From: a virus
Virus record (IMG/VR): IMGVR_UViG_3300020383_000006
Span: 62,001-126,000 of that record
Strand: one strand, 5' to 3'
Length of the DNA: 64,000 nucleotides
Shown here: piece by piece, positions 4,898 to 21,111 of the stretch
Position numbering within the stretch: position 1 is the stretch's first letter
How the letters are laid out: each line of letters starts with the position of its first letter
Translations under genes and position numbers: made by a program
Notes under the pieces: generated by a model
The model's input: the letters and a program-made list of their open reading frames with translations, nothing else
Databases searched by the model: none
Told to the model about the DNA's origin: nothing

Positions 4898-6289
4898 ATG
4901 GACAAATATATTGATGGTGTGAGAGTCATCGTAGCTGAAGAACACCATGATTGTGAACACCTACTTGGTAAATTTTTAGATGAAAGTCATTATGACGTTT
5001 TAATAGACGAAGATTGTGATTTTTACGCGCCACCAGAAAACACTTTATTCGGTGTAGAAGAAACCTCAGAAGAAAAATGTATTTTCAAACTGCGCAAAGG
5101 TTTTTTCAGTATGGAAGAACAACGTGGCGCATATGAAGGGTTACGTGATGCGGCAGTTGCTTCTAACAACCGTGGAATTGCTGCTGGCGACCGTACTGAA
5201 ATGACGGGCAACCGAGTTTTCGTTACTGAACGTCATTTACGTATTTTAGACATGATGATGAATCCTGCTGGTGCTGTTATTGATGATGCCTTTACGGTAG
5301 CTGATGCGGTAGCTGATAAGTCTTGGGGTAATCCTAATTCTAAAAAAGGTGAAGCATGGATTATTCGAGTTGTTGGGGATAACTTTGATTTTGAAAAATG
5401 GGCTGAAGAAACAGTAAAATTATCCCCCAGTGAAATGAATAAGAAAGCACGTGAACTTTCAAAAGGCGTTTCTACTACTACATACGCAAATGAAGTTCAT
5501 TCCGGTATTGCTGGTTGGTTTGACCGTTACCCAAGAATTCCTTTTGGGCGAGCAACTTCTTACACAGCAAACAACCCTGAAAAATTTGCTAAATCTTACC
5601 CTTTTCTACAAAAACTTTCGGATGGATTTTCTAAATTTTTGCCTGAACGTTTCGTTAAACAAAAGAAATGTGCCGACTCATTAGACCCTGCTTTTGTCGT
5701 ACCTGAAACGCCGTTTACTACCCTGACGGTTAATAAAACGTTCCGTACAGCAGCTCACAGGGACGCTGGTGACCTGAAAAAAGGGTTCTCTAACCTTAGC
5801 GTGATCACTAATAAAGAAAAGTGTTACACTGGCGGTTATTTAGTTTTACCTGAGTTCCGTGTAGCTGTAAACATTCGTCCTGGTGACTTATTACTTATTA
5901 ATAACCATGACGGGGTTCATGGTAATACGCCTATTGAAATTGATGATGATGGTGAGCGCGTTTCAGTTGTTTGTTATTTCCGTGAAAATATGTTAGAATT
6001 AGGTTCTAAACCATATGAAGATGCAAGAGCCAAATTTGTTGAACAAAGAAGAAATGATAAAAACCACCCAGAGTGGCGTCCATTGTGGAACGGTATTAGT
6101 CCAGGAATGTTTGAGACTGATGAATGGTACAAATTTCTTTACAACGAAATTGGTGAAGAAGAATTATTAAAATACCATCCAAGGGCAAAAGGTAGCATTG
6201 AAGAATTTGAATCTTGTACTAAAAGAAAGGTACATGGGGATGATGTTTGTAATGGATGTAACAAAATATGTAATGGTCGAGGTGAATAA
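4898..6289 (+). CDS. TET/JBP-like 2-oxoglutarate/Fe(II) dioxygenase (DNA base hydroxylase)
   Basis: This 463-residue protein has the double-stranded beta-helix iron site in its second half. HRD (His287, Asp289) lies in the context FRTAAHRDAGD, the distal His is in HDGVHGN (His341 or His337), and the 2-oxoglutarate Arg is in ERVSVV (Arg354). The surrounding pattern, with GGYLVLPEFRVAV and RPGDLLL, is that of the TET/JBP family, which oxidises the methyl of 5-methylcytosine or thymine in DNA. The N-terminal 200 residues are of unknown type. The tail has a Cys cluster (Cys440, 451, 454, 458) that may bind zinc. The next gene starts exactly at its last base, so the products are coupled. Whether C or T is the substrate cannot be read. 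Confidence 0.75.
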   Translation: MDKYIDGVRVIVAEEHHDCEHLLGKFLDESHYDVLIDEDCDFYAPPENTLFGVEETSEEKCIFKLRKGFFSMEEQRGAYEGLRDAAVASNNRGIAAGDRTEMTGNRVFVTERHLRILDMMMNPAGAVIDDAFTVADAVADKSWGNPNSKKGEAWIIRVVGDNFDFEKWAEETVKLSPSEMNKKARELSKGVSTTTYANEVHSGIAGWFDRYPRIPFGRATSYTANNPEKFAKSYPFLQKLSDGFSKFLPERFVKQKKCADSLDPAFVVPETPFTTLTVNKTFRTAAHRDAGDLKKGFSNLSVITNKEKCYTGGYLVLPEFRVAVNIRPGDLLLINNHDGVHGNTPIEIDDDGERVSVVCYFRENMLELGSKPYEDARAKFVEQRRNDKNHPEWRPLWNGISPGMFETDEWYKFLYNEIGEEELLKYHPRAKGSIEEFESCTKRKVHGDDVCNGCNKICNGRGE

Positions 6290-7113
6290 TGTTAATTTGT
6301 ATACCAACGTATAAGCGCGAAGAAAACCAAAAATGTTATGAACGTATGCCCGACGAAATTAAACGTCGGGTTTTATTGGCTACTCATTCTGATGAAGTAG
6401 AAAACCTTAAAAAAGCTAACCCAGAAGCAAATGTTGTGGATATTGGAGTCACTGACGGCATCGCTGACGTGAGACAAAGAATACTTAACTACGCAAAATC
6501 ACAAAATGAAGAAAAAGTTTTTATAATGGATGATTCTTGCACATTCAAGAAAAGAGTTAAAATGAAACTTACTGAAATGGGCGCTCAAGATTGGGAAGAA
6601 ATGATTGAAAGGGTTTCAGAAAGGCTAGATGAATACCCTATGGTCGGAATTTCTGACCAAGCCGGAAATAACCGCGTTGAGAAACCGGAATTAGAAAACC
6701 AACGTTCATACAGTTGTTATGGTATCAACGTAGAATTTTTTAAAGAAAACGGCATAAGATTTGATGCTATGTATCAAGAAGATAATGATATCAAGTTTTA
6801 TGAAGATTTTTACGTTATACTGAAATTATTGACTTCAGGGTTTAAGAACTTGGTTATCTATGAATACGCCTTTTCACACGCACACGGCAAAAAGGGCGGT
6901 AACAGTGTATTAAGAAGTAATAATACACATAAAAAATCAATAGATTCTTTGAAAACGTTTTTTCCTAAGTTTGTTGATGTCGTAAAGAAGGAAAACCCAT
7001 CTTGGAAAGCAGGTTTAAATGATGAAGAAAACTTTAGATGGGACGTGAAAATTTCTTGGAAAAAGGCTTTTGAATATGGACAATCTAAAGTAGAAAGCGT
7101 TTCTTTATTTTGA
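6289..7113 (+). CDS. TET-associated glycosyltransferase-like protein
   Basis: This 274-residue protein starts with MLICIPTYKR, the beginning of a GT-A nucleotide-sugar fold. It has the metal-binding Asp pair in VFIMDDS (Asp81, Asp82) and an EDFY segment near residue 162, likely acceptor side. Its place directly behind the TET/JBP-like gene fits the glycosyltransferases described next to phage TET enzymes, which are predicted to glycosylate the hydroxylated base. The protein ends in ESVSLF, and the polymerase at 9413 ends in QVSLF. C-terminal tails of this kind bind the T4-type sliding clamp, so modification may be coupled to replication. Function is inferred from fold and context; the sugar is unknown. 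Confidence 0.65.
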   Translation: MLICIPTYKREENQKCYERMPDEIKRRVLLATHSDEVENLKKANPEANVVDIGVTDGIADVRQRILNYAKSQNEEKVFIMDDSCTFKKRVKMKLTEMGAQDWEEMIERVSERLDEYPMVGISDQAGNNRVEKPELENQRSYSCYGINVEFFKENGIRFDAMYQEDNDIKFYEDFYVILKLLTSGFKNLVIYEYAFSHAHGKKGGNSVLRSNNTHKKSIDSLKTFFPKFVDVVKKENPSWKAGLNDEENFRWDVKISWKKAFEYGQSKVESVSLF

Positions 7114-7123
7114 GGAAGACTTT

Positions 7124-8173
7124 ATGAAATATGAGAAAAGGTTAGTCGTTGATTTTGATGACACACTATTTTTTACTAAAAACCGTGATTGGGAAAATGC
7201 GGAACCCAATTTAGAATTAATAGAAAAGATTAACGGTCTTTATGAAGAAGGCTGGAGAGTAGATATTTTTACTGCTAGAGGTTCAATATCTTGTGACAGT
7301 AGGGAACAAGCAAAGGAAAAATACCTTAATGGTATGTTGCGGTTGCTTGAAAAATATAACGTTATGTATCATGAAATATCTTTTGAAAAACCTTTGGCCG
7401 CTTATTACATTGATGACAAATCTATCACGCCAGAAGAATTTATTAAGAAAGATTTTAAGCAATTACAAGGCGGTCTATCAGGTAGTGATATTTATACTGA
7501 TGGTGAACAAGTCCATAAAACAGATGATAACAGCCATAATGTTGTTGAATGGTATAACGCCACGAATAATATATTAAATACGCCTGAGATACATAGGGTT
7601 GTTGGTAACACTGTTTCTATGGAGTATATTGAACATAATGAATCTTTTTTTGAATCTAATGTTTATTTTGCGTTAGCGTTAATCCAAGAGTCATTAGATT
7701 CAATGAGAAAATTGAAACCGATAAACAATTTAAGGTTTTCTGATTATAAGAAAAGAATTTTAACTAACCACCTTAAACCAGCTTTAGAAAATGATTCACT
7801 AAGTAAACAACAAAAAAAGGTTTTGTTGATAACATATGAAAATTTATCCCTTATTGACGTAAATCCATCATTTTCCCATGGCGATTTCGGTATAAAAAAT
7901 ATGCTTTTTAACGAAGACAAGAAGCTTTATTTGATAGACCCAATCCCACAAACATTCGGTTCTTTAGAAATAGATGTTGCGAAATTCATAGCTTCTATGT
8001 ACATAAATGAATATAATGAGCAACTAATTAATACCTCATTAAAAACCCTTTGTACATTCAATGGTCTAGAGCTGAGTTTAATTAATAAACTAATCAGTTC
8101 AGAATTAATGAGAGTCGTGAAATACCACCCTGACCCTGAAAAGATCGTGGAGCTTATATCGAATGTTTATTGA
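7124..8173 (+). CDS. Fusion of HAD-type phosphatase and choline/aminoglycoside-kinase-like domain
   Basis: This 349-residue protein has two catalytic parts. Residues 1-115 are a small HAD domain with DFDDT (Asp10, Asp12), TARG (Thr50) and YYIDDK (Asp97, Asp98), complete for phosphoryl transfer. Residues about 120-349 resemble aminoglycoside/choline kinases. They carry the loop SHGDFGIKN (Asp254, Asn259) and metal ligand LYLIDP (Asp272), while the N-lobe Lys is not obvious. HAD, kinase and TagD-like nucleotidyltransferase folds also occur together in bacterial surface-polysaccharide loci, where they make CDP-activated groups. Here the fusion follows the glycosyltransferase by 10 nt and overlaps the nucleotidyltransferase gene, so it probably makes a phosphorylated small molecule. 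The substrate is unknown. Confidence 0.65.
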   Translation: MKYEKRLVVDFDDTLFFTKNRDWENAEPNLELIEKINGLYEEGWRVDIFTARGSISCDSREQAKEKYLNGMLRLLEKYNVMYHEISFEKPLAAYYIDDKSITPEEFIKKDFKQLQGGLSGSDIYTDGEQVHKTDDNSHNVVEWYNATNNILNTPEIHRVVGNTVSMEYIEHNESFFESNVYFALALIQESLDSMRKLKPINNLRFSDYKKRILTNHLKPALENDSLSKQQKKVLLITYENLSLIDVNPSFSHGDFGIKNMLFNEDKKLYLIDPIPQTFGSLEIDVAKFIASMYINEYNEQLINTSLKTLCTFNGLELSLINKLISSELMRVVKYHPDPEKIVELISNVY

Positions 8174-8627
8174 TAGGAAATCGTTGTCTGAGAAATTAAA
8201 TAAAGAGATGGATGAGGTTAAGATAGGTTTTACTTGTTCCACCTTTGATTTATTTCATGCTGGACACGTTGTTATGTTAGAAGAAGCCAAAACTATGTGT
8301 GATTACCTTATAGTGGGGCTTCTTTCTGACCCGACAATAGATAGACCAGATTCTAAAAATAAACCTATACAAAGTATGTTTGAGCGATATATTCAAGTTT
8401 CTTCTTGTAAATATGTCGACGAAGTTATACCTTTCCAAACTGAACAAGAAATTATCGATATAATTTTAACCATACAACCTGATGTGAGGGTTGTTGGGGA
8501 AGAATATAAAGGTGAAAATTTTACTGGAAACGATTTGTGTTTCGTACATTTTAATAAAAGAAGACACTCTTTTTCTTCAACTGATTTAAGAAAAAGAGTT
8601 TTTGAAAATGAAAATAAAGGTGAATAA
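8163..8627 (+). CDS. HxGH nucleotidyltransferase (TagD/CTP-type)
   Basis: This 154-residue protein has the nucleotidyltransferase signature TFDLFHAGHV with HAGH at residues 32-35, and the second phosphate-binding motif SSTDLR at 138-143. It is close in length to glycerol-3-phosphate cytidylyltransferase and related CTP or ATP enzymes. These join a nucleotide to a phosphorylated alcohol and release pyrophosphate. It overlaps the HAD-kinase fusion gene by 11 nt, so the two should be made together: the kinase could supply the phosphorylated substrate and this enzyme could activate it. Which nucleotide and which alcohol are used cannot be told from sequence. Confidence 0.75.
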   Translation: MFIDRKSLSEKLNKEMDEVKIGFTCSTFDLFHAGHVVMLEEAKTMCDYLIVGLLSDPTIDRPDSKNKPIQSMFERYIQVSSCKYVDEVIPFQTEQEIIDIILTIQPDVRVVGEEYKGENFTGNDLCFVHFNKRRHSFSSTDLRKRVFENENKGE

Positions 8628-9412: not shown

Positions 9413-11980
9413 ATGATATATACCTATTACCGCCAGCTTGGTAATAAAATCCTACTTAGATATATTGATGAAGAAGGTGAAACCCATTCCAAAAAAATTG
9501 ATTTTTATAAACCGAAACTATACTTGAGAAGCGAAAAAGAATGTTCCCATCGTTCAATTTATGGGGAACCGTTGCGTGAAGTCGAATTTCCTGACATTAA
9601 TGCGGCAAAACAATTTGCTGAAGAACACAAGTATATTCCTGAAATCGGTTTGAACGGCAATTCAAATTATGCAAACCAATTCATTATTGAAGTTTTTGAT
9701 GGAAAAACGCCTAAGTTTGATATCAATACCTTTAATATCGGTATGTTTGATATCGAGGTTGATGCTGATGAATTTCCTTTACCTGAAGAAGCCAAATATG
9801 TGGTTAATGCTTTCTCACTCTACTCTAGTAAGGAAAACAAGTTCTATGCTAGGGCTATACCTCATAAACCTGAAGATAATTGGTCTAAGGATGCTTCAGA
9901 AGAGGATGAAATCAAAAAATTAGATATTGATTTCAAACTTTGTCAAGATGAAACTGAATTGTTGATGGAATTTTTGACGTTGGTTTCTTCGGGAGATTAC
10001 CATATTATTTCAGGATGGAACTCACAAGGCTTTGACGTTCCTTACTTAGTAAACCGTTGCAGTAAAATCGTCGGTGAAAAAACCACAAGGAAAATGCTTT
10101 CCCCGTTTAATAAAATTGATGAACGTGAAAGTATTGATAACTACGGCAAAAAGAAAGTCAAATATATTTTGAGCGGTTTGCCTCACCTTGATTTCATGGA
10201 TTTATATAAGAAACACGTTTTTACACCAAGGGAATCATATAAACTTGATTTCATTGCTTCCGAAGAATTGGGTGAAAATAAAATTGAATATGAAGATACG
10301 CTTCATGATTTGTATCGTGAAAACTTTCAGAAGTTTGTAGATTACAATATTCAAGATAGTAATCTAATTAAGCGACTAGATGACAAACTCGGATTATTTC
10401 AATTGACGCTTTCTTTGGCTTATATTTCTTTATCTAATTTTGAAGATACAATGGGTACGGTTAAAATTTGGGAACAATTAGTTGCTAAATTTTTGTATCA
10501 AAAAGGGAATAAAGTTCCGTTATTCAGGAAAGAAGCGATAACTGATGAACGTGATTTTGAAGGCGCTTTCGTTAAAGAACCTGTTCCTGGGTTTTATAAT
10601 TGGATAGTGAGCTTTGACTTAAATTCACTTTACCCGCATATCGAACAACAATGGAATATCGGTCCAGAAACGCTAGTTCCTTATGACCAATTACCTAGTG
10701 AATTAAAAGAAATCGTTGATAACTATACGTTCAATGATATTTTAGACATGAAAGTTAACATAAAACCGTTATTAGAAAAACATAATTTAACAATGGCGGC
10801 AAACTTTGAATTTTACAAGATTGATGAAATGTCATTCTTTTCTGAGATTAAACGTGAGTTGTATAGTGAACGTAAAGTACATAAAAAAGCAATGCTTGGT
10901 TATGAACAGAAAAAGGTAGATGCTGAATCAAGTTCAGAACAATTCAAGTATGAATCACTTGAATCTTCAGAAAATTCTATGCAAATGGGATTAAAAATCT
11001 TGCTCAACGGAGGCTACGGAGCCCTTGGCAATACGTCTTTTCTTTACTATAAGGTTGAGAATGCTGAAGCGATTACGTTATCCGGTCAATACGTTAACAA
11101 GTATGTTTCTCAGAAAATTGAAACGTTCTTACAAAAATTATTTTCTTCAGAAAAACGTTATTGGGTTTACTCTGATACGGATTCAGCGTATCTTACTATT
11201 GAAGATTTTGTTAATACGTTAGATGGTTCTAAAGGGGTTGAGTATCTAGTAGAACAAACTGATCGTTTCTGTGAAGATGTTATTTCACCTGAAATTAAAA
11301 AGTTGTGTGATGAAATTTGCGAGTACATGAATTGTTATGAACAACGCATGTTCTGGGAACGTGAAGTTATTTCTAATGTAGCTGTTTGGGTTGCTAAGAA
11401 AAAATATGTAATGTCGGTTCTTGATTCAGAAGGAACGAAATATTACAAAGAGCCCAAAATTAAAATCATGGGTATGGAGTCCGTAAAATCTTCAACCCCA
11501 GGATGGGCTAGGGTGGCTCTTAAAAGTTGCTATAAATCCTGTTTAGGGAAGGATAAGAGTGATTTTTATTCATTGTTGAGTGATATCACTGATTCTTATT
11601 ACAATAAACAACCAAATGAAATTGCTATTCCAACCAAAGTAAACGGATTAGAAAAATACCATGATCCTGAAAAAATATTCGCTAAGGGTGCACAGGCTCA
11701 TGTTAAAGCGGCTCTGTTCCATAATTACGTTTTGGAACAACAAGAATATAAACATATCGGCAAAATTAATAGCGGAGATAGTATTAAATACGTTATACTG
11801 AAAGAACCGAACCCAACTGGATTCCCTGTTATCGGTTTTGATACTTACCTTCCTAAAGAATTTAATGTTGAGGATTATATTGATAAAGACACTATGTTTG
11901 AAAAATCATTTATGTCTGCATTAAGAATATTCCTAAATGCTATTAAATGGGAAGAAGAAGAACAAGTCAGTTTATTTTAA
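9413..11980 (+). CDS. 43: DNA polymerase, T4 gp43 type (family B)
   Basis: This 855-residue protein is slightly shorter than T4 gp43 (898). It has the 3'-5' exonuclease Exo I motif FDIEVDADEF (Asp113, Glu115). It also has motif A DLNSLYPH near 403, motif B with KILLNGGYG near 531, and motif C YSDTDSAY near 586, so both activities look intact. It ends in EEEQVSLF, a C-terminal clamp-binding tail as in T4/RB69 gp43. It replicates the phage genome with gp41, UvsX and the clamp; the clamp and clamp-loader genes are not in this window. There is no sign of an intein or intron here. Confidence 0.95.
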   Translation: MIYTYYRQLGNKILLRYIDEEGETHSKKIDFYKPKLYLRSEKECSHRSIYGEPLREVEFPDINAAKQFAEEHKYIPEIGLNGNSNYANQFIIEVFDGKTPKFDINTFNIGMFDIEVDADEFPLPEEAKYVVNAFSLYSSKENKFYARAIPHKPEDNWSKDASEEDEIKKLDIDFKLCQDETELLMEFLTLVSSGDYHIISGWNSQGFDVPYLVNRCSKIVGEKTTRKMLSPFNKIDERESIDNYGKKKVKYILSGLPHLDFMDLYKKHVFTPRESYKLDFIASEELGENKIEYEDTLHDLYRENFQKFVDYNIQDSNLIKRLDDKLGLFQLTLSLAYISLSNFEDTMGTVKIWEQLVAKFLYQKGNKVPLFRKEAITDERDFEGAFVKEPVPGFYNWIVSFDLNSLYPHIEQQWNIGPETLVPYDQLPSELKEIVDNYTFNDILDMKVNIKPLLEKHNLTMAANFEFYKIDEMSFFSEIKRELYSERKVHKKAMLGYEQKKVDAESSSEQFKYESLESSENSMQMGLKILLNGGYGALGNTSFLYYKVENAEAITLSGQYVNKYVSQKIETFLQKLFSSEKRYWVYSDTDSAYLTIEDFVNTLDGSKGVEYLVEQTDRFCEDVISPEIKKLCDEICEYMNCYEQRMFWEREVISNVAVWVAKKKYVMSVLDSEGTKYYKEPKIKIMGMESVKSSTPGWARVALKSCYKSCLGKDKSDFYSLLSDITDSYYNKQPNEIAIPTKVNGLEKYHDPEKIFAKGAQAHVKAALFHNYVLEQQEYKHIGKINSGDSIKYVILKEPNPTGFPVIGFDTYLPKEFNVEDYIDKDTMFEKSFMSALRIFLNAIKWEEEEQVSLF

Positions 11981-12555: not shown

Positions 12556-13515
12556 ATGTCTCTAGCTGAAAAATTTGCTAAAAACTCAAAATTGAAAGGT
12601 AGTGGAACGTTTTCTAAAACATTAGAAAAACCAGTGAAACTATATGACACTGGCGTACCAGCATTAAACCTTGCTTATAGCGGTGACCTATTTGGTGGAA
12701 CTAAATCAGGCGTTACTTGTATAGCAGGTAAATCAAAATCATTTAAAACGTTATTTGGGTTGATTGCTTGTAAAGCGTATATGGATGAACACCCTGACGC
12801 ATATATGTTATTTTATGATTCAGAAGGCGGTGCGTCGAAAGAATACTATGAACAAATTGGTATTGATACCGACCGAGTTATTTATCTACCTATCATGAAT
12901 ATTGAGGAACTAAAATTTGATTTAGTTCCTAAACTTGAAGAAATCAAAAAAGAACATGATGAAGCTAAAAAAGAAGAAGATAAACCAAGGTTCATCGTAT
13001 TCTGTGACTCAATCGGAAACTTAGCATCAATTAAAGAAGTAACTGATGCAATGAATGACAATTCAGCTACTGATATGGGTATCAGAGCTAAAACACTAAA
13101 AGCATTATTCCGTATCATGACACCTTATTTCAAGCGTTGTGAAATACAAATGATTGCTATTATGCACACGTATGATGAAATGGCTGCTATGGGTGCACCA
13201 AAACAAATTATGAGCGGTGGTTGTGTTACTGAAGGAACCCGTATTATGCTTGAAAACGGGGATTTTGTAGAAATACAAAATATCCAAGAAGGTGACATGG
13301 TAATGTCAAAAGAAGGTCCTAGAAAAGTAGACCATATTTGGGATCCTGAAACTCTTGAAGAAGGAAACCCAGAATGCTTGCGTTTAACTTTCGATGATGG
13401 ATATCAAGTAGAATGTTCCGAGAAACATAGATTCTTAGTTAAAAATGAAAACGGTGATGAAGAATGGGTTATGGCTAAGGATTTAACTGAAGGAATGGAC
13501 TTAATTTCTATTTAA
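12556..13515 (+). CDS. uvsX: UvsX recombinase N-terminal half fused to split-intein N part
   Basis: Residues 1-222 are the N-terminal part of T4-type UvsX (RecA-like strand exchange). They carry Walker A GKSKSFKT (58-65) and Walker B-like FIVFCDS (about 147-153), and end at KQIMSGG. Residue 223 is Cys, and the last 97 residues are an intein N-fragment. Block A begins CVTEGTRIMLENGDF. Block B, DGYQVECSEKHRFLV, keeps its His but has Ser for the usual Thr. A stop follows, with no intein C part in this gene. The rest is at 14733. Protein trans-splicing with that gene would give a 373-residue UvsX, close to T4's roughly 390. The break is in the conserved loop before TGPLYSSDQ, the sort of site inteins favour. 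Confidence 0.9.
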   Translation: MSLAEKFAKNSKLKGSGTFSKTLEKPVKLYDTGVPALNLAYSGDLFGGTKSGVTCIAGKSKSFKTLFGLIACKAYMDEHPDAYMLFYDSEGGASKEYYEQIGIDTDRVIYLPIMNIEELKFDLVPKLEEIKKEHDEAKKEEDKPRFIVFCDSIGNLASIKEVTDAMNDNSATDMGIRAKTLKALFRIMTPYFKRCEIQMIAIMHTYDEMAAMGAPKQIMSGGCVTEGTRIMLENGDFVEIQNIQEGDMVMSKEGPRKVDHIWDPETLEEGNPECLRLTFDDGYQVECSEKHRFLVKNENGDEEWVMAKDLTEGMDLISI

Positions 13516-13522
13516 TTTGAAT

Positions 13523-13583
13523 TTTAAACCTCTAGGATAATAAATACTTTATGCGAAGAGTACAAAAGTCCTAGAGGTTTAAA
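13523..13583 (+). promoter_or_regulatory. 15-bp inverted repeat masking the endonuclease ribosome site
   Basis: A perfect 15-nt arm at 13523-13537 (containing AAACCTCTAGGA) is complementary to 13569-13583 (containing TCCTAGAGGTTT), around a 31-nt loop. The second arm contains the Shine-Dalgarno AGAGG and the A of the start codon of the endonuclease gene. RNA reading through from uvsX would hide that start. The loop holds a late-type promoter box (separate entry). Confidence 0.8.
13538..13546 (+). promoter_or_regulatory. Late-type promoter box TAATAAATA inside the hairpin loop
   Basis: The box matches the AATAAATA variant seen before late genes at 25711, 29491 and 56229. A transcript starting about 6-8 nt downstream would lack the first arm of the hairpin and leave the endonuclease start open. 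This agrees with the late-only translation known for T4 homing endonucleases such as I-TevI. Confidence 0.6.
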
Positions 13584-14746
13584 TGAATATAGTTTATAAA
13601 ATAACTTTTTTAGATAGAAAAGAAAATAACATATACCCATATATCTATATAGGTTCTAAATCAAATTGTAATTTTGTTGATGGTAAAATTATAGATAGAA
13701 ACGGTAATAGTTATTATGGAAGTTCAACTTGGCCAAATTATTATGAAATAGTAAAAAAGGGTAATCTGAAAATTGAATTATTATTTCATTCAGAAAATTA
13801 TAATGAATGTTTAATGAAAGAAAAAGAATTACATTTAAAAGAAGATGTTGTAGCGAACCCTGAATATTTTAATAAGACAATAGCTTCTATAAGTAATTAC
13901 TCTGACCCTAGTTATGCAACTTATAAACATACATTATATGGTAAAATAGTTAGGTTGCCTAGAAACCATCCGTTAGTCGAAAACGGTACTTATGTTGGGG
14001 TTACAAAAGGGGATACAGTTAAACATTCAGGCAATGGTTCTAGGTTTGGAATGTTTAATTCTTTTTATGGAAAAACGCATAGTGAACAAACTAAACAAAA
14101 ATTAAGAGAACATAATTTAGGCAAAGTTCATTCTGAAGAATCAAGAAGAAAAATGTCTAAATCTAGGAAAGGTAAAAAGAAGACTAAAGAACACAAAGAA
14201 AAGATAGGTAGGAAAGGTATGGTTAATTTTGTTAACGTAAAAACAAAAGAAACCATTAGGGTGTATAGGGAAGAATTTGAGTTGAGGGATGACAAAAAAG
14301 ATTGGTTGACCCAAGCAAAATATAATTCTATCTATAACAAACCTGAAGAAATTATTTGTGAGTATTGTGGAATGAGCTTATCTCCTGGTAATTATTCTCG
14401 GTTTCATGGTAAAAATTGTTCTAAAGTAAAAGTCAGAGAATATAACCCATTCAAAAAATTACTGGAAGGTAAAGGGAAAAACAAAACTATTGAGGAGGTT
14501 CTTTATTTCTTTGATGAGATTGTAAATTTTTTAAAAGAAAATAAAAAGCCTGAAAATATGAGTAGTAAAAGGTATTCATTAGAAGTTTTAATACCTTTTA
14601 CAAAAAATAAATTCGGTGATGTAGAACCCTTTTACGCTGTGATAAAAAGAGTATATAATTCATTTCGAGAAGGGAAAATTGGTGAAGAGACATTTTCATA
14701 TTTCTATAAATGGAAACAAAAGGTAGATTTTAATGCTATTAAGTAA
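13583..14746 (+). CDS. GIY-YIG homing endonuclease between the uvsX halves
   Basis: This 387-residue protein has an N-terminal GIY-YIG-like nuclease domain with IVYKI near residue 3, YIYIGSK near 20-26, SYYGSS near 43-48, and a Glu-rich helix at about 80. Residues 165-215 hold two to three NUMOD3-type DNA-binding repeats of the form FYGKTHSEQTKQKL. A CEYCG...HGKNC zinc knuckle is near 259-279. Such enzymes cut an unoccupied copy of the target gene and so spread themselves. It lies exactly between the two intein-bearing uvsX genes, so the likely target is an intact uvsX. Its start is hidden in a hairpin, and its last 14 nt overlap the next gene. The sequence looks intact. Confidence 0.85.
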   Translation: MNIVYKITFLDRKENNIYPYIYIGSKSNCNFVDGKIIDRNGNSYYGSSTWPNYYEIVKKGNLKIELLFHSENYNECLMKEKELHLKEDVVANPEYFNKTIASISNYSDPSYATYKHTLYGKIVRLPRNHPLVENGTYVGVTKGDTVKHSGNGSRFGMFNSFYGKTHSEQTKQKLREHNLGKVHSEESRRKMSKSRKGKKKTKEHKEKIGRKGMVNFVNVKTKETIRVYREEFELRDDKKDWLTQAKYNSIYNKPEEIICEYCGMSLSPGNYSRFHGKNCSKVKVREYNPFKKLLEGKGKNKTIEEVLYFFDEIVNFLKENKKPENMSSKRYSLEVLIPFTKNKFGDVEPFYAVIKRVYNSFREGKIGEETFSYFYKWKQKVDFNAIK

Positions 14747-15293
14747 AATTGAAAAAATTGGTAAGCGTCCTGTTTTCGACATATCCGTTAATGGTTCACA
14801 AAATTATGTTTTAGAGAACGGGGTTATAAGTCATAATACCGGACCACTATATTCCTCAGACCAAGTTTTCATCGTTCGCAAGCGCCAAATCAAAGAAGGC
14901 AAAGAAATTATTGGTTGGGAATTTATTCTTGATATTGAAAAATCAAGAACGATTCGCGAAAAATCATCAATCCCATTTGAAGTGAAATACGGGGAAGGAT
15001 TAAATCGTTTTTCTGCTCTACTTGACTTAGCTATTGCTTCGGGTCACGTGATTAAACCTAAGATGGGTTGGTATTCTCGTGCTAACGTAGAAGATGATAA
15101 AAATTGGCGTAGAAAAGAAACTTCTTCAGATGAATTTTGGGATCCTATTCTTAATGACCAAACGTTTGTCGATGCCGTTAAAAATATGTATCGTTTGGAT
15201 GGTGGCGACCCAATTCTACAAAAGAAACTTGATAATTTAGTTCAAGATGAAGATTTTGACCCTGAAACAGGTGAAATCTTCGATAAAGAATAA
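14733..15293 (+). CDS. uvsX: Split-intein C part fused to UvsX C-terminal half
   Basis: Residues 1-35 are an intein C-fragment: block F VFDISVNGSQNYVLENG and block G VISHN, ending in the required His-Asn. The next residue is Thr36, a legal +1 nucleophile. Residues 36-186 are the C-terminal part of UvsX, beginning TGPLYSSDQVFIVRKRQIK, which joins in register to the upstream half. The C-terminal tail is acidic, as in T4. The ATG at 14733 has AAGGTAG at a usable distance and lies inside the endonuclease gene. All parts for trans-splicing are present, so this is a working fractured gene rather than a pseudogene. Confidence 0.9.
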   Translation: MLLSKIEKIGKRPVFDISVNGSQNYVLENGVISHNTGPLYSSDQVFIVRKRQIKEGKEIIGWEFILDIEKSRTIREKSSIPFEVKYGEGLNRFSALLDLAIASGHVIKPKMGWYSRANVEDDKNWRRKETSSDEFWDPILNDQTFVDAVKNMYRLDGGDPILQKKLDNLVQDEDFDPETGEIFDKE

Positions 15294-15371: not shown

Positions 15372-16778
15372 ATGGTTTCTTTTGAAGACACTCTGTTTAA
15401 ATCTCTTTTGTATGATAGCAATTATGTTAGAAAAGTTTTACCGTACCTTGATGATTCATATTTTGACGGTAGCAGAAAAACATTATTCAATATCTACAAA
15501 AATTTATTTGATGAGTATAATGAAGTCCCGACCCTTGAAGCAATAGGCGTAGTCTTACAAAAAAGTCCAGTCGGGGAATCTGAATTTGAGGAAATTGCTG
15601 AACTACTTACAACATGCCATAAAAATAGAAAAGATTTACCAAATACAGAATTCCTAGTTAAGGAAACTGAAGAGTATTGTAGAGATAAAAAATTATACGA
15701 TTCAATTTACCAATCCATTTCGATTTTAGAAGATGAAAAGTCAAACAAAAATTCTATACCTGATTTATTAGAAGATGCGTTGTCTATATCGTTTGACACT
15801 TCTATTGGTATGGATTTTTTCGAAGATGCGGAAAAGCGATATGAAGCCTATACAGCTGAAGACGCAAGAATTCCTTTTCCACTTAACGCATTAAACCGTT
15901 TATCCAATGGCGGTCACAAAAAGAAGTCATTGAGTTGCGTGTTAGCAGGAACAAACACGGGTAAATCTGCTCTTATGTGTTATCTTTGTGGTGAGTTTTT
16001 AAGAAGAGGATTAAATGTACTGTATATTTCTTTAGAAATGGCTGAAGAGGATGTTCAAGAACGTATTGAAGCTAACTTACTGAACGTTTCTACTGATGAA
16101 CTTAAAAAGTTGACTAAAGAACAGTACATGGGTAAAATTAGGAATTTACAAAGTAAAACAAACGGCAAATTTGTTGCTAAAGAATACCCTACCTCGGCTG
16201 GTCACGTTGGTCATTTTAGACACTTGATAAAAGAACTGAAACAAAAGAAAAAGTTTGAACCTGATTTCATATTTGTAGATTACATTAATATTTGCGCATC
16301 TTATCGTATTAGTGCCCAAGGTAGTAACTCATACAGTTACATTAAGGCGATTGCCGAAGAACTGCGTGGATTGTCTATGGAAATGAATACGCCTATTATG
16401 ACGGCAACTCAGGTTAATCGAAGCGGTATGGATAAATCACCTGAAATGACTGATACTTCAGATTCATTCGGTTTGCCTATGTCACTTGATTTCTTTATAT
16501 CATTGTCCCAAAATGAGGTTCACCAAGAAAACGGTCAACAATTAATCAATTGTATAAAAACCCGTTGGGGTAACAAATCAAAAATTAAACCTGAGTTAGT
16601 TAATATTGATTGGGATAAAATGCGATATAGTGATATTGATAGCGCAACTTCGGTTGCTTCTAAAGTAGGCAACAATAAGCCTAAAACAAGCAAAGGTTCT
16701 AATGAGAGTTCTACTGGCAGTTCATTGAGAGATAAAAAGAAACGTAAAGGTTCTTCAGCAGAATTTCAATGGGAATAG
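15372..16778 (+). CDS. 41: Replicative DNA helicase, T4 gp41 type (DnaB-like)
   Basis: This 468-residue protein is close to T4 gp41 (475). The N-terminal helical domain spans residues 1-150. The RecA-like motor domain has Walker A AGTNTGKSAL near 193, Walker B DFIFVDYIN near 296, and the ATQVNRS motif with downstream arginine-containing loop near 352. The last 35 residues are Lys/Ser-rich and end in SAEFQWE. It unwinds DNA ahead of the gp43 fork with the primase. AAGGATG gives a good ribosome site. It directly follows split uvsX, as helicase and uvsX are close in T4. Confidence 0.93.
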   Translation: MVSFEDTLFKSLLYDSNYVRKVLPYLDDSYFDGSRKTLFNIYKNLFDEYNEVPTLEAIGVVLQKSPVGESEFEEIAELLTTCHKNRKDLPNTEFLVKETEEYCRDKKLYDSIYQSISILEDEKSNKNSIPDLLEDALSISFDTSIGMDFFEDAEKRYEAYTAEDARIPFPLNALNRLSNGGHKKKSLSCVLAGTNTGKSALMCYLCGEFLRRGLNVLYISLEMAEEDVQERIEANLLNVSTDELKKLTKEQYMGKIRNLQSKTNGKFVAKEYPTSAGHVGHFRHLIKELKQKKKFEPDFIFVDYINICASYRISAQGSNSYSYIKAIAEELRGLSMEMNTPIMTATQVNRSGMDKSPEMTDTSDSFGLPMSLDFFISLSQNEVHQENGQQLINCIKTRWGNKSKIKPELVNIDWDKMRYSDIDSATSVASKVGNNKPKTSKGSNESSTGSSLRDKKKRKGSSAEFQWE

Positions 16779-19266: not shown

Positions 19267-19294
19267 AAAAGGGACTTCTTAAAGTCCCTTTTTT
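19267..19294. terminator. Bidirectional terminator at the convergent junction
   Basis: AAAGGGACTT (19268-19277) pairs with AAGTCCCTTT (19282-19291) around CTTA, with TTTT after it on the + strand and TTTTCTTT on the - strand. It separates the early arm from the late arm and lies over the end of the endonuclease gene. Confidence 0.8.
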
Positions 19295-21045
19295 ATTACC
19301 AGTTTATACCTTAATGAACCTGCATCATATATTCTAAGAAACCCATTCTTCCTCATATTTTGGTATTCAGTTAAAGATTCATCGTATTTATCTAATTTTT
19401 CTTCTAATTTATGTTTCATGAATTTATTTCGTGAATGTCGTTTACCATCATAATAAAAGTAATTAGGGTTCGTCATTCCGTTATATTCAAACCCATTTTT
19501 CTCATACATTATTCCATTACCGTAGTCTAATGACACATAAGTATGTATAATTGATGGATTATGTTTTCTTATAAAAGATTTAAGCAACTTTCCGAAGCCA
19601 CCTACGCAATTCAGCGAGGCATACCTAATAATTTCGTATTCGTCCTTACAGGAAGGATTTAACCCTAAAACGGATACGAGCTTACCTTCATAAATTAAAC
19701 CATAATAATATTTTGCGTCACGTGAACCTTGAATATGTGTTTTTTCTAAAAATGGAAAATATTCTTCTTTTGTTAATTTAACAACTGAACATTTTCTAGC
19801 ATAATATCGTTCATTTGATTTACCACACATATGTAATATTTTAGATTTAATCACTTCAGGTTTTTGTTCCCACCAATCTTCATACACATGGATAATTCTA
19901 TATCCTTTATCTAAAACCTCAAGGGATTTATTTTGATGGTAATTCCTATCACCTTTCATTTCAAACGAATGCCAAAACATGCCGTTAAATTCTATAACGA
20001 TTTTATGTTCAGGTATAATGATATCACATTCTTTGGGTGAAATTAATGAACGGTCATTTGGAATGTAATCAATATTGTTTTCTTCTAGAAATTTTCTAAC
20101 TTCCATTTCTTTTGATGAAACAGAATAAGAATTTTTCCTATCTATACCTAAAGCAATCATTGCTTGTAAAACAGTTCTATGAGAACCAACTCCAATTACT
20201 TCAGCAATTTTCCTAGAACATTGATACTTTTCGTATAATTCTAACAATAATTGTTTATTTGTTAATGCTTCTATAATTTCATCAGTAAAATGTATTTTAG
20301 AATAATTGTCATGCCCGTATCGTTCTTGGTTTGTTTCAATAACTTTTTGGAGTATATCCTTAGACTGAAGTGGGCGTTCAACACCATGATTTTGTAAACA
20401 AGTACCTTTTGATTTATCTAATATTTCAGGTGATTGTAATACATGGTTAACACCATATTTTTCAAGAACAGTTTCGGTGGATTTTTCTTTAGTAGATTCT
20501 AATTGAAATACGTTATCAACACCATATCTTTCATTTACGGAATCTACTCTATTTTGTTTAACTTGTTCACTTGAACGATAATCTTCTACACCATATTTTT
20601 CTTTTGAAGTTTGTTTAACTTTTTCTTTAAACTCATTAGAAGTAAAAACGTGTTCAGAACCATAACGTTCTTTATTTGTTTGTTTAATCTTTTCTTTAAT
20701 AGAATCATCTTTCATATGGTGACCACCATATTTTTCTGATGAAATTTTTCTAGCATTTTCTGATGAACATTTAACTGAACAGAATTTAGCAAAACCGCCT
20801 TTTTTATAATAAGGGGATTGTTTATCTATTCCCTTTGGTAAAATATTACCGCATGAGCATTTTGGAATTGAATTTATTTCATACAAAACGCAATATAATC
20901 TTTGAACCAAAGGTACGTTATTATATTGTTCATCTAAGAAAGAAGTTTTGATCAATAATTCTTTAACAAAATTTGTATGTTTACTGGAACGAATTTCCCT
21001 TCCATTAGGGTAATTATTTTCAATGATATATTCTTTCAAGTTCAT
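19279..21045 (-). CDS. Free-standing homing endonuclease, Vsr/EDxHD-like with DNA-binding repeats
   Basis: From the ATG at 21045 this is 588 residues; a TTG at 21078 with AAGG upstream is an alternative start. A zinc-knuckle-like CSCG...FCSVKC is near residues 63-94. About six tandem repeats of roughly 23 residues, with the core ERYGVENV, follow (residues about 100-240). Then come a helix-turn-helix-like stretch and a PD-(D/E)xK/Vsr-type core: CDIIIPEHKIVIEFNGMFWHS and HQNKSLEVLDKGYRIIHVYED. The last 190 residues, with VKLTKEEYFPFLEKTHIQGS, match a C-terminal domain common in T4-like phage homing enzymes. It sits just behind the gene 23 terminator. The target may lie in the neighbouring capsid gene of other phages. 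Confidence 0.75.
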   Translation of the reverse strand: MNLKEYIIENNYPNGREIRSSKHTNFVKELLIKTSFLDEQYNNVPLVQRLYCVLYEINSIPKCSCGNILPKGIDKQSPYYKKGGFAKFCSVKCSSENARKISSEKYGGHHMKDDSIKEKIKQTNKERYGSEHVFTSNEFKEKVKQTSKEKYGVEDYRSSEQVKQNRVDSVNERYGVDNVFQLESTKEKSTETVLEKYGVNHVLQSPEILDKSKGTCLQNHGVERPLQSKDILQKVIETNQERYGHDNYSKIHFTDEIIEALTNKQLLLELYEKYQCSRKIAEVIGVGSHRTVLQAMIALGIDRKNSYSVSSKEMEVRKFLEENNIDYIPNDRSLISPKECDIIIPEHKIVIEFNGMFWHSFEMKGDRNYHQNKSLEVLDKGYRIIHVYEDWWEQKPEVIKSKILHMCGKSNERYYARKCSVVKLTKEEYFPFLEKTHIQGSRDAKYYYGLIYEGKLVSVLGLNPSCKDEYEIIRYASLNCVGGFGKLLKSFIRKHNPSIIHTYVSLDYGNGIMYEKNGFEYNGMTNPNYFYYDGKRHSRNKFMKHKLEEKLDKYDESLTEYQNMRKNGFLRIYDAGSLRYKLVIKKGL

Positions 21046-21111
21046 ATTATAATTCTGGTTCTTTATAAGATCATTCAATTATACCTTAATTTATTGGTGT
21101 TTTATAGGCAT

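What the first reader, a model, noticed from the sequence alone, without database searches (positions are those of the whole stretch)
12556..15293. uvsX is a fractured gene: split intein halves with a GIY-YIG endonuclease gene between them
Seen: the first gene ends in a 97-residue intein N part (Cys223 start, block A and B). The third starts with a 35-residue intein C part ending in His-Asn followed by Thr. The extein halves join in register at MSGG/TGPLYSSDQ, giving a 373-residue UvsX. Each piece has its own start and stop. Known: split-intein fractured genes have been described from phage metagenomes, mainly with EDxHD-type endonucleases. A GIY-YIG enzyme in this place, and UvsX as host protein, look unusual to me. 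Inference: the phage depends on protein trans-splicing for recombination.
Basis: partly seen in the sequence, partly recalled or inferred. Interest (0 to 1): 0.92.

Follow-up and report, generated by a model that had tools for sequence, protein, structure and literature searches.

The report
Phage recombinase gene split by mobile intein
A T4-like phage makes its main DNA-recombination protein in two pieces that a split intein should join after translation, with a homing-endonuclease gene between them; this is one member of a widespread, still-moving family that is sitting unnamed in many deposited phage genomes.

Summary
uvsX is carried as N-extein + 97-aa class-1 intein half, a 387-aa Seg/GIY-YIG-type endonuclease gene, and a 35-aa intein half + C-extein. 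The predicted 373-aa product aligns without a gap at the junction to an intein-less relative (70%) and to T4 UvsX. The same split site occurs in 19 deposited T4-like phages and in all 80 IMG/VR loci kept from 197 hits; none of the 12 phage regions read names a split intein. A published fractured gene (AceL NrdHF) also has a GIY-YIG enzyme. New evidence: (1) intein residues are nearly invariant and under purifying selection; (2) the unit moved recently between Klebsiella, Enterobacter and Salmonella phages (unit 99-100%, flanking uvsX 70-88% identical); (3) the endonuclease start is buried in a hairpin with a T4-type late-promoter motif, the I-TevI control layout, across 17 loci; (4) HNH enzymes at the same site share the window enzyme's C-terminal module; (5) endonuclease loss leaves the intein split. 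One relative has uvsX in three pieces, with an 11-residue middle extein. Splicing and homing are untested. New member of a known kind; interest moderate.

The parts
12556..13515 (+). uvsX-N: N-extein plus intein N half, own start and stop
   Evidence: UvsX phrog_97 res. 1-222 E 4.5e-54; 3io5 E 2.9e-45
12556..13221 (+). N-extein, UvsX residues 1-222, ends MSGG
13222..13512 (+). split intein N half (97 aa), Cys1, block A CVTEGTRI, block B CSEKHRF
   Evidence: TIGR01445 over cut-off; gp41-1 intein 6qaz E 4.6e-5; invariant columns
13523..13583 (+). RNA hairpin, two 15-nt arms 13523-13537 / 13569-13583, burying the endonuclease Shine-Dalgarno (AGAGG 13573-13577) and the A of its ATG
   Evidence: 100% complementary arms; -25.8 kcal/mol, z -5.9, 0 of 200 shuffles; same layout in 17 loci
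13539..13546 (+). T4-type late-promoter-like box AATAAATA (7 of 8 of TATAAATA) just 3' of the hairpin's 5' arm; an RNA started from it (about 13552) would lack that arm
   Evidence: several of the window's late genes have TATAAATA about 40-50 nt before their starts
13583..14746 (+). homing endonuclease gene (387 aa), Seg/GIY-YIG-type N domain, NUMOD3, zinc-ribbon-like C part
   Evidence: NUMOD3 5.1e-10; phrog_314 3.7e-21, phrog_7504 1.4e-19 homing endonuclease; fold matches to Seg/GIY-YIG enzymes; SegE_GIY-YIG in 3 of 10 family members
14048..14512 (+). C-terminal module (about residues 156-310) shared with HNH endonucleases at the same uvsX site
   Evidence: (E 1e-17 to 1e-44)
14733..15293 (+). 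uvsX-C: intein C half plus C-extein, own start (Shine-Dalgarno-like AAGG 14720-14723 inside the endonuclease gene) and stop
   Evidence: phrog_18112 3.1e-57
14733..14837 (+). split intein C half (35 aa) ending VISHN
   Evidence: TIGR01443 over cut-off; Intein_splicing PF14890 positions 125-155
14838..15290 (+). C-extein, starts at +1 Thr (TGPLYSSDQ), UvsX residues 223-373
   Evidence: 3io5 E 5e-36; PF21134 T4_UVSX_C

Best explanation
A mobile split-intein unit sits in the recombinase gene uvsX. SHOWN from sequence: two separately encoded uvsX halves with matching class-1 intein halves, an endonuclease gene between them with its own buried start site, and conservation and recent spread of this kind of unit in other phages. 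INFERRED: the two halves associate through the intein, which cuts itself out by the class-1 pathway (Cys1 acyl shift, transfer to +1 Thr, Asn cyclisation) and leaves a 373-aa UvsX. On early/middle transcripts the hairpin keeps the endonuclease silent while both uvsX halves are translated from their own starts; late transcripts starting at the box lose the 5' arm and allow endonuclease synthesis. The endonuclease cuts intein-less uvsX alleles of co-infecting phages near MSGG|TG, and repair copies intein halves plus endonuclease gene into them. That repair itself needs UvsX, so the element sits in the gene whose product it needs to spread. When the endonuclease is lost or replaced, the intein stays split because precise healing is hard.
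For: Exact junction against intact UvsX. Intein profiles over curated cut-offs; model of the continuous relative L085 best matches the gp41-1 intein (6qaz E 1.2e-8, TM 0.79/0.81). In 63 non-redundant loci Cys1 and block B His are 63/63, ends HN 60 and SN 2, +1 Thr 60 and Ser 2. dN/dS 0.05-0.25 for the N half, 0.00-0.31 for the C half, near the exteins. Homing signature: three phages of Klebsiella, Enterobacter and Salmonella share N half 100%, endonuclease region 99%, C half 99-100%, while uvsX flanks are 70-88%. Single uvsX in the record. Hairpin plus late box over 17 loci: mean z -4.3; a box of 7/8 or better in 16 of 17 vs 6.9 expected; PMC2988022 describes this control for I-TevI, segB and Aeh1 mobE and says homing uses UvsX. 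Window-type endonucleases at E below 1e-30 all lie inside fractured uvsX; 18 loci retain one, 16 have only a short gap.
Against: No splicing, cleavage or homing has been measured. The window copy is diverged from all others seen and has no close relative, so purifying selection and recent transfer are shown for other members, not for this copy. The general GIY-YIG Pfam profile PF01541 does not hit the window protein and the PDB fold search with its low-confidence model found nothing. The window's late box has one mismatch (P 0.23 alone). The cut site is unknown.
Confidence: 0.9

Rival explanations
1. The uvsX gene was broken by an endonuclease gene and the intein halves are dead remains; the phage uses another recombinase or none.
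For: No activity shown; two relatives end SN instead of HN.
Against: All catalytic residues are kept in the window; family-wide purifying selection on both halves; both exteins are full length and junction-exact; the arrangement is kept in 19 isolates that grow.
Confidence: 0.04
2. The two UvsX halves work as a non-covalent pair without splicing.
For: Nothing direct; split RecA-fold proteins are conceivable.
Against: Both pieces carry matching intein halves with conserved splicing residues; if splicing were not needed Cys1 and Asn would drift.
Confidence: 0.03
3. The intervening stretch is removed at RNA level (a group I or II intron), not as protein.
For: A relative, L019, does have a group I intron two codons after the intein site.
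Against: Rfam finds no intron in the window; intein halves are in frame with the exteins and have their own start and stop.
Confidence: 0.01
4. The intein works but in this phage the endonuclease is an inactive passenger, so the unit is fixed and no longer mobile.
For: Endonuclease decay is common in relatives: truncated in VmeM-32, TG1 and L079, absent in 16 of 63 loci; the window enzyme has an extra C-terminal stretch of about 100 aa.
Against: Open 387-aa frame with all conserved N-domain positions, intact hairpin, late box and start.
Confidence: 0.25
5. Assembly or sequencing error made one gene look like three.
For: Single metagenomic record.
Against: Three long open frames, a recognisable extra gene, and independent isolates with the same layout.
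Confidence: 0.005

Closest known systems
Same fractured uvsX in deposited T4-like phages (PspYZU05, Thanatos-1, Yersinia TG1, Klebsiella Lion_ER11, Escherichia HY03 and ELT1, Proteus Pm5461 and PM2, Vibrio EniLVp02 and VmeM-32, Enterobacter EnC07, Salmonella CF-SP2 and SEA1)
   Same: Same insertion residue, 96-97-aa N half, 35-aa C half, same family of GIY-YIG-type endonuclease in most, same hairpin control
   Different: About 40-49% identical to the window; their endonucleases lack its extra C-terminal stretch; Thanatos-1 has a SegE-type enzyme; product names in the regions read do not say split intein
AceL NrdHF fractured gene with GIY-YIG endonuclease (PMC7891396)
   Same: Gene in two parts, split intein 98 + 48 aa, GIY-YIG gene between
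   Different: Host is a ribonucleotide reductase subunit; class 3 intein without Cys1; here class 1 with Cys1 and HN
gp41-1 split intein (PDB 6qaz) and other fractured genes of Dassa et al. 2009
   Same: Best sequence and fold match; similar size and split point
   Different: Dassa 2009 could not be read, so whether UvsX is among its enzyme types is unknown to me
T4 SegA (free-standing GIY-YIG enzyme beside uvsX that cuts uvsX) and I-TevI, segB, mobE control hairpins (PMC2988022)
   Same: GIY-YIG-type enzyme tied to uvsX; SegA is the best of three T4 enzymes tested with the window family's profile; same late-only hairpin layout
   Different: SegA lies outside uvsX and is not tied to an intein; similarity is weak (12.2 bits)

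Membership tests
Fractured gene with split intein | Conserved enzyme gene broken in two, each part with its own start and stop and one intein half | tested here: met
Fractured gene with split intein | Free-standing endonuclease gene between the parts | tested here: met
Fractured gene with split intein | Protein trans-splicing restores the enzyme | not testable with these tools
   needs co-expression
Class 1 intein | Cys or Ser at position 1, block B His, terminal Asn, +1 Cys/Ser/Thr | tested here: met
   window C1, H69, HN, +T; 63/63, 63/63, HN 60 and SN 2, T 60 and S 2 in the family
Class 1 intein | Hint fold | tested here: met
   modelled on the continuous relative L085, mean pLDDT 77.6, best PDB match gp41-1 intein TM 0.79/0.81; the window halves were not modelled together
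GIY-YIG (Seg-type) homing endonuclease | GIY-YIG catalytic domain | tested here: inconclusive
   PF01541 not hit; PF19835 SegE_GIY-YIG hits 3 of 10 family members, best E 3.8e-4; VYK..YIG motif and conserved Glu80; fold matches to Seg/GIY-YIG enzymes in BFVD; PDB search negative
GIY-YIG (Seg-type) homing endonuclease | NUMOD3 / I-TevI-type DNA-binding part | tested here: met
   NUMOD3 5.1e-10, 10 of 10 members; family profile hits the I-TevI DNA-binding domain 1i3j E 2.7e-4
GIY-YIG (Seg-type) homing endonuclease | Cuts the empty allele and promotes its own inheritance | not testable with these tools
   indirect: unit 99-100% identical in diverged uvsX of three phages
UvsX recombinase | Spliced product is a full UvsX | tested here: met
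   373 aa, 70% to L096, 43% to T4 UvsX (157/362)

The most novel reading that the evidence does not exclude
uvsX carries a self-sufficient split mobile intein whose C-terminal target-reading module stays with the site while nuclease domains (GIY-YIG, HNH) are exchanged on it, whose endonuclease is timed late by a hairpin and late promoter so that it does not compete with making the recombinase it needs for homing, and which can invade the same gene twice, leaving a recombinase assembled from three proteins by two trans-splicing steps (L035).
Probability: 0.5. Interest if true: 0.72.

Novelty: new member of a known kind. Interest (0 to 1): 0.52.

Why it matters
It puts a whole family of split inteins into phages that can be grown: ELT1 is deposited with E. 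coli K-12 MG1655 as host. That makes it possible to test, in crosses with intein-less T4 relatives, whether a split intein with a separate endonuclease gene really homes. The host gene is the recombinase that homing depends on, so splicing efficiency, phage fitness and element spread can be measured together. Sixty-three natural variants, including one continuous form and endonuclease-free forms, are a ready set for studying how inteins become and stay split, and a source of new trans-splicing tools. Current annotations give these halves as two recombination proteins and miss the link.

Tried and rejected
Intron instead of intein: no Rfam intron in the window. Pseudogene: rejected by family-wide selection and residue conservation. 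Rarity of UvsX host and GIY-YIG type: rejected. PDB fold search with the endonuclease model: nothing below E 3 (model mean pLDDT 66). hhalign of the endonuclease N domain to three T4 GIY-YIG enzymes: not significant (probability 0.6). A mixed alignment of N and C halves was misaligned by MAFFT and dropped for an N-half alignment on the continuous L085 intein. Finding the cut site from conversion tracts: identity falls off gradually on both sides, no site resolved. Dassa 2009 is not in the library; no paper held contains both uvsX and split intein, and none of 10 paper searches surfaced a fractured uvsX. An earlier count gave the late box as 13537-13544; the correct place is 13539-13546. Sigma-70 promoter scan of the region: not above shuffles.

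Full report
WHAT IS THERE. The window is positions 62001-126000 of a 145.5-kb IMG/VR virus record. It is T4-like: DNA polymerase B at 9413-11980 and a DnaB-type helicase (gp41) at 15372-16778 flank uvsX, and the nearest isolate by major head protein is Pseudomonas phage pf16 at 64%. The N half of the intein (13222-13512) and the C half (14733-14837) pass the NCBIfam cut-offs for intein_Nterm and intein_Cterm. The exteins fit T4 UvsX 3io5 residues 8-186 and 187-331, that is, with nothing missing or extra at the junction, and the joined 373-aa protein is 70% identical to L096, an intein-less uvsX with the empty site MSGG|TGGMYSSN. No second uvsX and no second intein were found in the record.

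HOW COMMON. tblastn against 50,697 phage records shows the C half matched from residue 1, intein included, in 19 distinct deposited phages (25 rows with duplicates) among 1,800 records with a uvsX C part, and the N half in the same phages. I read 12 of these regions: hosts are Pseudomonas, Shewanella, Yersinia, Klebsiella, Escherichia, Proteus, Vibrio, Enterobacter, Salmonella and Shigella. They are annotated as two recombination or hypothetical proteins, often with a homing endonuclease between; VmeM-32 has a note 'HintC'. A scan of IMG/VR with the N-half alignment gave 197 relatives; the 80 kept are all uvsX with the intein at the same residue.

IS THE INTEIN ALIVE. Over 63 non-redundant loci Cys1 and the block B His are invariant, the end is HN in 60 and SN in 2, and +1 is Thr in 60 and Ser in 2. 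Pairwise dN/dS of the N half is 0.05-0.25, like the exteins. The continuous form L085, a single ORF with the same halves joined, gives a model whose best PDB match is the gp41-1 intein. These are family results; the window copy itself has no close relative for such a test.

IS IT MOBILE. Klebsiella phage Lion_ER11, Enterobacter phage EnC07 and Salmonella phage CF-SP2 share the N half at 100%, the endonuclease region at 99% and the C half at 99-100%, while the rest of uvsX is 70-88% identical and the next region 75-78%. That is what recent homing of the whole unit would leave. Identity declines gradually away from the junction, compatible with co-conversion, but no cut site can be read from it.

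THE ENDONUCLEASE. The 387-aa product has NUMOD3, matches PHROG homing-endonuclease families, and its model matches Seg/GIY-YIG enzymes in BFVD. The GIY-YIG domain is supported at family level rather than for this protein alone. Relatives at E below 1e-30 all sit inside fractured uvsX; more distant ones are free-standing near other genes. At the same site other loci carry HNH-type enzymes (by the HHIIPxCMGG..NLVxLTAREHFIAH motif), a Vsr-like one (L049) or another GIY-YIG-like type (L024, L026). The HNH enzymes share the C-terminal part of the window enzyme (NUMOD3, then KIGRKG..IRV, then CxYC..RWHNxNC): E 8e-18 to 2e-31 for the part after NUMOD3, against no match (E above 0.4) for the free-standing GIY-YIG relatives that are closer in nuclease domain. 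In IMG/VR the strong matches to this module (E 2e-6 or better) lie in fractured uvsX, the others are weaker; in isolates weaker relatives (about 35%) also lie beside gene 46, so the module is not exclusive to uvsX. My reading is that the target-reading part stays with the site and nuclease domains are exchanged. That is inference from sequence.

CONTROL. Between the N-half stop and the endonuclease start lies a perfect 15-nt inverted repeat (13523-13537/13569-13583) that buries the Shine-Dalgarno and the first base of the ATG. An AATAAATA box (13539-13546) sits just behind the 5' arm, so an RNA started from it would free the start. The phage has TATAAATA about 40-50 nt before gp23, the prohead gene, the portal and a fibre gene. 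A similar layout, with unrelated sequences, is found over 17 loci: mean z -4.3; box of at least 7/8 in 16 of 17 against 6.9 expected; summed box score above all 200 shuffles. It is not perfect everywhere: in some loci the box overlaps the 5' arm, and in L035 and L095 the hairpin is weak. Some of the 17 are related, so this is not 17 independent tests. PMC2988022 describes exactly this control for I-TevI, segB and Aeh1 mobE.

LOSS AND RE-INVASION. Of 63 loci, 18 have the window-type enzyme, 27 another insert, 16 only a short gap, one is continuous, and one runs off its contig. In L025 the N half ends with GNLNRWHNENCKHK, the tail of a lost endonuclease. So the intein stays split after the enzyme is gone. 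In L035 uvsX is in three pieces..AHTYSTM|intein a//AHN|SMFPTAVISGG|intein b//THN|TGLMYS.., with a different endonuclease in each gap; sister L100 has only intein a. L019 has a group I intron two codons after the intein site. The MSGG|TG stretch is a hot spot for intervening elements.

VERDICT. Observation right, mechanism very likely right, rarity claim wrong. A well-formed, diverged member of a widespread uvsX family of fractured genes that I did not find described in the papers I could search; Dassa 2009 could not be read.

Noticed in passing
L035:2400-6365 (same contig as L097, L106 and L115: IMGVR_UViG_3300025502_000435): uvsX in three pieces by two split inteins, with a middle extein of only 11 residues (SMFPTAVISGG) and a different endonuclease gene in each gap. 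Sister L100 has only the first intein. Seen complete on one contig only.
   Followed up: partly
L019:5903-6107: Group I intron (Rfam RF00028, 103.8 bits) inserted about two codons after the split-intein junction of uvsX, so both element types target the same stretch.
   Followed up: partly
L016, L018, L027, L029, L043, L045, L063, L081, L094 and others, between the uvsX halves: HNH-type endonucleases at the same site share the C-terminal module of the window's GIY-YIG-type enzyme: nuclease-domain exchange on a common module.
   Followed up: yes
L025:4501-4821; L147:2924-3058: Remains of lost endonucleases: the tail of one is fused to the intein N half in L025, and only a short tail module is left in L147.
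   Followed up: partly
L085 and L086: A continuous (cis) form of the uvsX intein in a single ORF, the joined counterpart of the split family.
   Followed up: yes
window 19279-21078 (-): 599-aa Vsr/EDxHD-like endonuclease (DUF7487, HTH, weak Vsr) directly downstream of the major head protein gene, the place where T4 has segD.
   Followed up: no
window 4898-8627: TET/JBP oxygenase, TET-associated glycosyltransferase, a kinase-like protein and a cytidylyltransferase in a row: probable DNA base hypermodification cluster.
   Followed up: no
L008 (Vibrio phage vB_VmeM-32) 929-2498; L023, L067, L072, L079 and L082 downstream of uvsX: Further split-intein halves in the DNA polymerase gene and in the gene just after uvsX (by position the gp41 helicase) in the same phages: several replication genes may be fractured at once.
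   Followed up: no
L109:2554-4332: A UvsX-like gene with two inteins, one inside the P-loop (GESG|C..HN|SGKS) and one at the same GG site, with an in-frame TAG just before the GG of the second; recoded stop or broken copy.
   Followed up: no
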